A stretch of DNA of 40,088 nt, taken from positions 1-40,088 of the IMG/VR virus record IMGVR_UViG_3300009379_000002; one strand, written 5' to 3'. Source of the stretch: a virus. Below the pieces are notes generated by a model that saw only the letters and a list, made by a program, of their open reading frames with translations, ran no database searches and was not told where the DNA came from. The position numbers and the translations under genes are program-made. How positions within the stretch are numbered: the first letter of the stretch is position 1; each line of letters begins with the position of its first letter. This document shows, one piece after another, positions 1-39,624 of this stretch.

Positions 1-76
1 ATTTTTTTTTCAAGCAGAAGACGGCATACGAGATTCCTCTACGTCTCGTGGGCTCGGAGATGTGTATAAGAGACAG
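1..76. other. Illumina P7 / Nextera i7 adapter (artefact)
   Basis: After A plus nine T, bases 11-34 match the Illumina P7 oligo, 35-42 are an eight-base index (TCCTCTAC), and 43-76 are the Nextera read-2 adapter ending in the Tn5 mosaic end AGATGTGTATAAGAGACAG (58-76). This is library adapter left at a contig end, not phage DNA. The poly-T before P7 fits read-through past the adapter. Any ORF crossing these bases is spurious. Confidence 0.98.
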
Positions 77-30172: not shown

Positions 30173-30199
30173 AAGCATCACCTCCAATTTATTTAATGT

Positions 30200-30343
30200 G
30201 ACGGGGGCGGGATTCGAACCCGCGCACTCAGAGCCGACGACTTCTCCTGCCTTGCGGAACTTTATTTTACTCTGCTTAGTTCCTACGACTTTTTCATGCG
30301 CGGAGATGCCGCCGGTGGCGTCTACCAGTTCCGCCACCCCGCC
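30200..30343 (-). tRNA. tRNA-like gene with extended helix instead of anticodon arm
   Basis: Read on the minus strand: acceptor GGCGGGG (30343-30337) pairs with CCCCGTC (30206-30200, one GU). Leu-type D arm GCG-GAACTGGTAGA-CGC is intact, T arm GCGGG-TTCGAAT-CCCGC is perfect. In place of the anticodon stem, CCGGCGGC-A-TCTCC (30315-30302) pairs with GGAGA-A-GTCGTCGG (30247-30234): 13 bp with an A-A mismatch, enclosing a further hairpin (30256-30283). There is no anticodon loop with U33. The 3' end is followed by ACA, not CCA. Likely an RNA gene folded like a tRNA but not a decoding tRNA. Confidence 0.6.
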
Positions 30344-38728: not shown

Positions 38729-38753
38729 GTTTTCCCTTTGTCTCCTTTTTTAT

Positions 38754-38777
38754 GCGGGCGCCATGGCTGACGCCCGC
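38754..38777. other. Hairpin upstream of leftward gene
   Basis: GCGGGCG-CCATGGCTGA-CGCCCGC, a perfect 7-bp stem with a 10-nt loop. On the leftward side it lies just before the ribosome binding site of the 92-aa gene. It has no T-run on that side. Confidence 0.55.
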
Positions 38778-38797
38778 AAATTTTGGAGGAGTTTTTT

Positions 38798-38836
38798 ATG
38801 TCTGCCGGTCTTTCCCGACTGTCCGCTATTTTTTAA
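38798..38836 (+). CDS. Twelve-residue plus-strand ORF
   Basis: ATG 38798 preceded by GGAGGAG at six bases, coding MSAGLSRLSAIF then TAA. The signal is very good, but the ORF is tiny, so it could be chance or a leader peptide of a rightward transcript. That transcript could end at the terminator at 39289-39312. Confidence 0.3.
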   Translation: MSAGLSRLSAIF

Positions 38837-38908
38837 GAAAGTCCTGTCAGGAACAGCATACACTGTTTTTGCCGGACTCTTAACCCTGTTTGAATGATGT
38901 TTAGATTG

Positions 38909-38953
38909 ATTGCTCTTCCCGTGTCAATTCACGTCCAAACATTCAAGAGCAAT
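38909..38953. other. Nested inverted repeat after tRNA-like gene B
   Basis: ATTGCTCTT (38909-38917) and AAGAGCAAT (38945-38953) form a perfect 9-bp stem. Inside, CGTG-TCAATT-CACG makes a second stem. It begins three bases past the 3' end of the tRNA-like gene. A leftward TTGACA (38922-38927)/TCTAAA (38900-38905) pair with 16-nt spacing also lies here, so it may hold a promoter. Confidence 0.45.
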
Positions 38954-38955
38954 TT

Positions 38956-39092
38956 GACAGTGGCGGGAATTGAACCCGCGCGATCAGGGCTACACAGTCA
39001 TGATATTATTTTGTCGTTGAAGCTAGTGCTGTGTGACTCAAATACCACCTGTTCGTTTAATACTCCTGCTGTTTCCATTTCAGCACACTGTC
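38956..39092 (-). tRNA. tRNA-like gene B, abnormal anticodon region
   Basis: Acceptor GACAGTG (39092-39086) pairs perfectly with CACTGTC (38962-38956). D-arm-like CTG-AAATGGAAA-CAG, T arm GCGGG-TTCAATT-CCCGC perfect. GGAGT then ATTAAAC looks like a Leu(UAA) anticodon stem/loop start (T33, TAA), but there is no matching 3' strand in the normal place; the next 90 nt are extra sequence containing ACACAG...CTGTGT. The D-arm sequence GTGCTG also complements CAGCAC inside. So the tRNA shape is kept at the ends but the decoding part is not usable as is. Confidence 0.6.
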
Positions 39093-39190
39093 ATTTTTGC
39101 CGGATAACGCTCCGGCGGGCGGCGGTCTTTGCCAGCTGTCATCATACGTTCAAAAGTTGATCTAATCGTATGGCCTTCTTTGAGCCATGC

Positions 39191-39283
39191 GCCCCCGACG
39201 GGATTCGAACCCGTGTAATCTGCTATGGTCTTACTCAGCTATTTGCCTGTGCCATAACAGGGTGCCGCCTCGCACACAAGGGC
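39191..39283 (-). tRNA. tRNA-like gene C, shortened D and anticodon arms
   Basis: Acceptor GCCCTTG (39283-39277) pairs with CGGGGGC (39197-39191, two GU). T arm ACGGG-TTCGAAT-CCCGT perfect. D-arm TGC-GAGGCG-GCA has a loop of only six nt. The anticodon-like hairpin CCTGT-TATGGC-ACAGG has a six-nt loop, not seven, and no normal anticodon. Its loop TATGG also complements CCATA (39228-39224) downstream. The variable region is ~30 nt with a direct repeat of ATAGC(T/A)GA(G/T)TA. 93 nt in total. Confidence 0.6.
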
Positions 39284-39288
39284 AGTTT

Positions 39289-39312
39289 GCGGAGGGTGTT
39301 ACTCCGCTTTTT
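39289..39312 (+). terminator. Rightward terminator near tRNA-like C
   Basis: GCGGAG-GGTGTTA-CTCCGC, 6-bp stem, followed by TTTTT. It would stop a plus-strand transcript, yet no convincing plus-strand gene is nearby, except the 12-residue ORF. This hints at an antisense RNA over the tRNA-like genes. Confidence 0.6.
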
Positions 39313-39372
39313 AACACAAGACAAAAATTGAACCTGTTAAGCGACCGGCTCGCCTTTGTCTTTTTTTTATTA

Positions 39373-39624
39373 CTATTGACCGAGAGGTGTATTATTAAAA
39401 CCGCCAAGCCTCCGTCTTTGCATTTGCTCGCATCTAATTTTTGTCATTATGCCTTTTGTGGCAATTGCAAGTTTCCGGTCTTTGGTTATTTCAACATCGA
39501 TATTGATGTCATCCGTCCTGCCGGATTCCTGAAGGCTGGTAACTTCTTTGTAGCTTTTAAGAGCCTCGTCTACAACGAAGTCAAGAGCGTTAATTTCCTT
39601 CTGCATAACTGGCGCTTTATTCAT
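39373..39624 (-). CDS. Small hypothetical protein
   Basis: 83 aa, mainly helical at the start (VMQKEINALDFVVDEALKSY) and with a Arg-rich end (KIRCEQMQRRRLGGF). Its start overlaps the previous stop (TAATG); behind AAGGAG. Unknown. Confidence 0.5.
   Translation of the reverse strand: MNKAPVMQKEINALDFVVDEALKSYKEVTSLQESGRTDDINIDVEITKDRKLAIATKGIMTKIRCEQMQRRRLGGFNNTPLGQ

What the first reader, a model, noticed from the sequence alone, without database searches (positions are those of the whole stretch)
30200..30343. tRNA-like gene with a long helix where the anticodon arm should be
Acceptor, D and T parts pair as in a Leu-type tRNA, but the anticodon stem is replaced by a 13-bp helix with one A-A mismatch (30302-30315 with 30234-30247), enclosing a further hairpin. 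Covarying-looking pairs (two GU, one mismatch in 14 positions) are unlikely by chance. This resembles the domain plan of tmRNA but is only 144 nt. Its own D-arm also complements AGTTCCGC inside the insert, giving an alternative fold.
Basis: partly seen in the sequence, partly recalled or inferred. Interest (0 to 1): 0.78.

Follow-up and report, generated by a model that had tools for sequence, protein, structure and literature searches.

The report
Phage tRNA-like RNA lacking anticodon arm
A bacterial virus encodes an RNA that keeps the end-stem and elbow of a transfer RNA but has a long double-stranded hairpin where the code-reading arm should be, so it cannot read codons; similar RNAs recur in unrelated viruses and none turned up in a comparable search of bacterial and archaeal genomes, which points to a little-known kind of viral tRNA mimic.

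Summary
No shuffle out of 500 (two shuffle types) put such a helix at that place. No single deletion restores an anticodon arm (p=0.26), so it is not a simple tRNA-plus-intron; it fails the tmRNA tests. The window holds two more tRNA-likes of this plan (39092-38955; 39283-39191) and no normal tRNA. A distant relative phage carries a probable homologue of one, without a normal anticodon loop, with compensatory acceptor and T-stem changes. Pattern scans found many unrelated phage elements of this kind; their elbow pair 15-48 covaries. The same long-gap pattern in ~85,000 cellular genomes gave only tandem or remnant tRNA-Leu. One family is conserved in five Aeromonas T4-like phages, annotated as tRNA-Val, tRNA-Leu or not at all. 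Best reading: a non-decoding, tRNA-processed scaffold RNA carrying a structured insert, a natural counterpart of the laboratory "tRNA scaffold". No homologue of this particular element was found, its 15-48 pair is atypical, and its function is inferred.

The parts
30200..30343 (-). W1: whole tRNA-like RNA, acceptor to acceptor (144 nt); discriminator A73 at 30199
   Evidence: fold, sequence; ARAGORN none
30337..30343 (-). acceptor 5' strand GGCGGGG
   Evidence: 7/7 pairs with 30206-30200
30317..30335 (-). Leu-type D-arm GGCGGAACTGGTAGACGCC (A14, A15, G18G19)
   Evidence: same D-arm as the phage elements
30302..30315 (-). 5' strand of the 13-bp helix that replaces the anticodon arm
30248..30301 (-). 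inner part enclosed by the helix; includes hairpin GGAACT (30283-30278) / AGTTCC (30261-30256)
30234..30247 (-). 3' strand of the long helix
30224..30233 (-). 10-nt variable region CTCTGAGTGC, no proper class-II arm; base 48 is C
30207..30223 (-). T-arm GCGGGTTCGAATCCCGC
30200..30206 (-). acceptor 3' strand CCCCGTC
38955..39092 (-). W2: second tRNA-like, acceptor GACAGTG/CACTGTC, 80-nt middle, no anticodon arm
   Evidence: Rfam tRNA 33.1 bits; probable homologue in L244
39191..39283 (-). W3: third tRNA-like, acceptor GCCCTTG/CGGGGGC, helix CUGUUAUGG/CCAUAGCAG at the anticodon position, T-arm ACGGG/CCCGT; weaker D-arm and G73

Best explanation
W1 is a non-decoding phage tRNA mimic built on a tRNA scaffold. 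It lies inside the minus-strand early gene block, between two genes and before a hairpin-plus-T-run, so it is probably transcribed with them (inferred). The acceptor, D-arm and T-arm rebuild the tRNA elbow, so host tRNA enzymes should cut its ends (RNase P at the 5' end, RNase Z or exonucleases at the 3' end), add CCA and protect it (inferred from what those enzymes read). The anticodon arm has been exchanged for a structured insert closed by a 13-bp helix, so it cannot read codons (shown from sequence). The insert is the working or variable part and the tRNA body is the conserved carrier. The likeliest use is a stable decoy or scaffold RNA that occupies a host RNA-binding factor or tRNA-acting enzyme during infection (function inferred, weakest step).
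For: Intact 7/7 acceptor, D-arm and T-arm with a helix beyond chance at the anticodon site. Three such elements and no normal tRNA in one 40-kb phage. A distant relative phage (helicase 46%, terminase 31% identical) carries a tRNA-like with an 18-nt non-canonical anticodon loop, probably homologous to W2, with compensatory changes in acceptor (U-A/C-G) and T-stem (G-C/A-U). Many unrelated phage elements keep 7/7 acceptors while the middle differs; pair 15-48 covaries in those without a restorable anticodon arm: A:U 18, G:C 9, A:C 3, G:U 0, Fisher 1.5e-5. The same long-gap pattern in genome contigs gave 50 hits, all tandem or partial tRNA-Leu. An Aeromonas T4-like family of five phages changes three stem pairs on both sides while keeping them paired (D-stem, inner hairpin, T-stem) and has an encoded CCA. 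Two gut-phage elements (L005, L158) share acceptor, D-arm and T-arm but have different inserts. RNase P, RNase Z, CCA-adding enzymes and LeuRS read the elbow (PMC4810234). Engineered tRNA scaffolds are built the same way and stabilise RNA in E. coli (PMC3753655).
Against: No homologue of W1 itself was found, so its own helix has no covariation test. W1 has A15 with C48, one of only three exceptions to the 15-48 rule. T-stem and D-stem are only about 0.56-0.58 likely in the computed ensemble. No expression data. No long word shared with, or complementary to, the rest of the phage, so no antisense target is visible.
Confidence: 0.55

Rival explanations
1. Decayed tRNA-Leu: a dispensable phage tRNA gene hit by an insertion, not yet eroded in its two outer thirds.
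For: Phage tRNAs are often dispensable; only one copy known; A15-C48 and the missing V-arm deviate from tRNA-Leu; the fold is only moderately better than shuffles.
Against: Acceptor, D-arm and T-arm intact; a 13-bp helix placed exactly at the anticodon stem is unlikely for a random insert; three such elements in one genome; homologous pair W2/L244 with compensatory changes; Aeromonas family conserved across genera. Caution: the search patterns demanded intact D- and T-arms, so decayed copies would be missed.
Confidence: 0.22
2. Leucine-charged but non-decoding tRNA: LeuRS charges it and it acts as a LeuRS decoy or as a leucine donor outside translation.
For: E. coli LeuRS needs A73 and D/T-loop contacts, not the anticodon or long V-arm; tRNA-Leu variants lacking both arms stay active (PMC9976931). 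W1 has A73, A14, A15, G18G19, U54/U55/C56.
Against: The A15-U48 pair named as essential in E. coli is A15-C48 in W1; among Leu-type anticodon-less phage elements only 9 of 19 keep A73 (9 of 16 after removing mis-flagged or near-duplicate rows), so charging with Leu is not a shared trait.
Confidence: 0.15
3. tRNA-Leu with a short intron that is spliced out to give a decoding tRNA.
For: Other phage tRNAs do carry inserts whose removal restores a canonical anticodon arm (L007, L020, L022, L078, L143; class-I examples too).
Against: For W1 no single deletion does so better than shuffled inserts (p=0.26), and no V-arm is available.
Confidence: 0.05
4. Compact tmRNA-like RNA (tRNA domain plus tag frame).
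For: A long helix at the P2 position and a T-arm identical to the tmRNA consensus.
Against: Pair 3-70 is C-G, true D-arm, no tag frame of the usual kind, no pseudoknots, Rfam and ARAGORN negative.
Confidence: 0.02
5. Fragments of a host tRNA kept as an attP or other recombination site.
For: Integrated phages often carry tRNA 3' ends.
Against: Both the 5' and the 3' part are present and pair; no integrase among about 30 window proteins scanned.
Confidence: 0.01

Closest known systems
Canonical bacterial tRNA-Leu (class II)
   Same: Acceptor length, Leu-type D-arm, T-arm, A73
   Different: No anticodon arm, no class-II variable arm, A15-C48, 144 nt
Engineered tRNA scaffold for RNA production (PMC3753655)
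   Same: Acceptor, D- and T-arm kept; anticodon arm replaced by a hairpin-closed insert
   Different: Natural, viral; insert function unknown
Bacterial and phage Y RNA (YrlA) (PMC8394870)
   Same: tRNA mimic with D- and T-arms and a long helix; 90-150 nt; Ro60-related proteins are reported in some phages
   Different: In YrlA the RNA ends form the Ro-binding stem; here the ends form a tRNA acceptor. No Rfam hit and no Ro/TROVE protein found in the window
tmRNA
   Same: tRNA-like end domain with a helix at the anticodon position
   Different: No C3-G70 to G.U swap, true D-arm, no tag frame, no pseudoknots, less than half the length
Plant-virus tRNA-like structures (e.g. TYMV; PMC4810234)
   Same: Viral RNA that rebuilds the tRNA elbow
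   Different: Those are 3' ends of RNA genomes; this is a separate element in a DNA phage

Membership tests
Canonical tRNA | 7-bp acceptor, D-arm, T-arm | tested here: met
Canonical tRNA | 5-bp anticodon stem with 7-nt loop, U33 | tested here: not met
   ARAGORN 0 genes; 13-bp helix instead
tRNA with one intron | one deletion restores a canonical anticodon arm | tested here: not met
   p=0.26 against shuffles, positive controls p about 0.003
tmRNA | G3.U70 alanine determinant | tested here: not met
   C3-G70 in the sequence
tmRNA | match to the tmRNA model or ARAGORN tmRNA | tested here: not met
   only T-arm, 17.7 bits against cut-off 47; ARAGORN none
tmRNA | SmpB-dependent tagging | not testable with these tools
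   needs experiment
Y RNA / YrlA | Rfam match at gathering score | tested here: not met
   window scan lists only tRNA (W2)
Y RNA / YrlA | Ro60/TROVE partner protein encoded nearby | tested here: not met
   no such hit among scanned window proteins
Leucyl-tRNA synthetase substrate (E. coli set) | A73, G18G19, U54/U55/C56 | tested here: met
   sequence; set from PMC9976931
Leucyl-tRNA synthetase substrate (E. coli set) | A15-U48 | tested here: not met
   A15-C48
Leucyl-tRNA synthetase substrate (E. coli set) | actual leucylation | not testable with these tools
   needs charging assay
Anticodon-less phage tRNA-like RNAs (grouping made here) | 7/7 acceptor, D- and T-arm, no restorable anticodon arm | tested here: met
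Anticodon-less phage tRNA-like RNAs (grouping made here) | standard 15-48 pair | tested here: not met
   exception with two others

The most novel reading that the evidence does not exclude
Phages carry a distinct class of natural 'tRNA-scaffolded' RNAs: the tRNA body is kept as a processed, stable carrier while the anticodon arm is exchanged for changing functional inserts. W1, W2 and W3 are three such cargos in one genome.
Probability: 0.35. Interest if true: 0.85.

Novelty: new variant of a known kind. Interest (0 to 1): 0.7.

Why it matters
tRNA finders either miss these RNAs or mislabel them (Aeh1 'tRNA-Val', PX29 'tRNA-Leu' for the same conserved RNA). If they are real non-decoding tRNA mimics, part of what is counted as phage tRNA supply is something else, perhaps decoys or stable scaffold RNAs used against the host. 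The Aeromonas family offers a direct test in culturable phages.

Tried and rejected
Relatives by flanking proteins: SprT-like and exonuclease scans found none; the terminase relative L025 has no T-arm; the helicase relative L244 gave the W2 homologue. Blast of W1 against phages gave only short tRNA arms. Window DNA around W1 matched no phage. Antisense or shared words between inserts and their own phage: not above shuffles for W1-W3. ARAGORN intron mode gave incoherent anticodons for W1. Two- and four-codon ATG frames inside W1 and W2 were dismissed as expected by chance. The alternative D-arm fold was rejected on energy. Y RNA was considered because Aeh1 has a vWA-type RNA-binding gene about 3 kb from its array; Pfam says DUF2828/DUF7788, not TROVE.

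Full report
Observation. The element lies on the minus strand, 30343 to 30200. It pairs as a tRNA in its outer parts: acceptor GGCGGGG/CCCCGUC, D-arm GGCGGAACUGGUAGACGCC and T-arm GCGGGUUCGAAUCCCGC, followed by A at position 73. Between D-arm and T-arm stand 94-95 nt instead of about 31-35. In 500 mononucleotide and 500 dinucleotide shuffles a helix this long appears somewhere in 3 and 6 cases and never at this place. ARAGORN sees no gene. Rfam sees only the T-arm of W1, through the tmRNA model.

More of the same in the window. Rfam reports a tRNA at 39092-38955 (33.1 bits) with an 80-nt middle. A third T-arm at 39214-39198 belongs to a 93-nt tRNA-like (39283-39191), whose fold again puts a long helix at the anticodon position; its D-arm is weaker. 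All three are on the minus strand with the early genes; W2 and W3 lie in a 640-nt stretch without a good minus-strand gene that folds far better than shuffles (z -4.8, 20 shuffles). The phage is a contractile-tailed bacterial phage (GpA-type terminase, lambda-type portal, tail sheath, bacterial SSB). No integrase was seen.

Is W1 a tRNA with an intron? I scored, for each element, the best anticodon arm obtainable by one contiguous deletion against shuffled inserts. Several phage elements are clearly restorable (L007, L020, L022, L078, L143, and class-I cases L027, L051, L095, L114, L139, L227-L229, L231, L239, L241; p about 0.003-0.013). W1 is not (p=0.26).

How widespread is the plan? Scans of viral contigs for a Leu-type D-arm and T-arm 60-111 nt apart, and for a looser D-arm, returned many loci. 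Some are tandem tRNAs or chance, but dozens have 7/7 acceptors that the pattern did not require. The same long-gap pattern (80-109 nt) over about 85,000 cellular genomes returned 50 stretches, all of them tandem or partial tRNA-Leu copies; the 54-90 nt range was not scanned there. Among 31 virus elements with no restorable anticodon arm, position 15 and position 48, which touch in the tRNA elbow, go together: A15-U48 18, G15-C48 9, A15-C48 3, U15-U48 1, G15-U48 none (Fisher 1.5e-5; by hand about 1e-4 after dropping near-duplicates). This may partly reflect ancestry from different tRNAs, but it shows that the elbow has not decayed. W1 itself is one of the A15-C48 exceptions. That group is a catch-all: a few members have a normal-looking anticodon stem with a huge variable region (L012, L018).

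Conserved families. The helicase relative L244 (46% identical helicase, 31% terminase) carries a tRNA-like with acceptor GACAGCG/CGCUGUC, a 5-bp anticodon stem and an 18-nt loop that is not an anticodon loop. It shares the upstream word GCAAAAATGACAG with W2, and differs from it by a two-sided change in the acceptor and one in the T-stem. The neighbourhood is similar but not identical in order, so 'homologue' is probable, not proven. Element L070 is from Aeromonas phage Aeh1 and is found in 13 Aeromonas records. In five distinct sequences three stem pairs change on both sides and stay paired, four change on one side and stay paired, and one is broken in one phage; CCA is encoded. GenBank calls it tRNA-Val in Aeh1, tRNA-Leu in PX29 and nothing in Ah1, AS5 and Wae14. 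It keeps a 5-bp anticodon stem but has a conserved domain of about 50 nt as 'loop'. In gut phages, L005 (in Bacteroides phage BF1-TP2) and L158 share acceptor, D-arm and T-arm but have unrelated inserts.

How it most likely works. Shown: tRNA outer parts kept, decoding part absent, helix beyond chance, plan recurrent in phages. Inferred: co-transcription, end processing, stability, and decoy or scaffold action. The inference rests on what the tRNA-handling enzymes read: RNase P, RNase Z, CCA-adding enzymes and LeuRS contact the elbow (PMC4810234), and laboratory tRNA scaffolds with the anticodon arm replaced by a hairpin-closed insert are made and kept by E. coli (PMC3753655). A leucine-charged role is possible because E. 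coli LeuRS ignores the anticodon and V-arm (PMC9976931), but only about half of the Leu-type relatives keep A73, so it is unlikely to be the shared trait.

Known kinds. It is a tRNA mimic, hence a new variant of a known kind. It is not a tmRNA (C3-G70, D-arm, model negative), not a Y RNA by any feature tested, and not a decoding tRNA. Ten full-text searches found no description of phage tRNA-like RNAs without anticodon arms; the library lacks most subscription papers and preprints, so absence there is weak evidence.

Limits. The search patterns required intact D- and T-arms, which favours intact elements. The contig starts with sequencing adapter, so its assembly is not flawless, though far from the elements.

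Noticed in passing
L095, L227, L228, L229, L231, L241, L027, L139, L051, L114, L239, L048 (viral contigs): Phage tRNAs for Asp, Gly, Ile, Lys, Asn, Ser and Thr carry an insert of about 45-55 nt between positions 28 and 29 of the anticodon stem (exact border ambiguous in some); removal restores a canonical arm. Most share a hairpin followed by ACAGCAA, while L027 and L139 share another related insert. They look like a family of short tRNA introns or inserts in bacterial phages.
   Followed up: partly
L215 2230-2622; L218 133-250; L219 133-250: Aeromonas T4-like phages have three unusual tRNA-like RNAs in tandem upstream of rI.1; the first has a 4-nt anticodon loop with covarying stem and a second T-arm-like hairpin inside.
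   Followed up: partly
L007, L020, L022, L078, L143: Phage tRNA-Leu genes with inserts of about 26-60 nt inside the anticodon loop; deletion restores the standard CUUAAAA or CUUAGAA-type loop and all keep A73.
   Followed up: partly
window 30185-30152 (-): Just downstream of W1: a strong ribosome-binding site (GGAGGTGAT) and a six-codon frame MKILVA*, then a hairpin with T-run at about 30126-30104.
   Followed up: no
window 38740-39380 (-): Stretch without a good minus-strand gene and with many stable hairpins besides W2 and W3 (fold z -4.8); probably a cluster of small RNAs.
   Followed up: partly
window 11-60: The contig starts with Illumina P7/Nextera adapter (CAAGCAGAAGACGGCATACGAGAT plus index plus GTCTCGTGGGCTCGGAGA), an assembly artefact.
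   Followed up: yes
L252 62-1642 (Aeh1p164): RNA-binding protein with DUF2828/DUF7788 and a vWA domain about 3 kb from the Aeromonas tRNA-like array; layout recalls Ro60 but no TROVE hit.
   Followed up: partly
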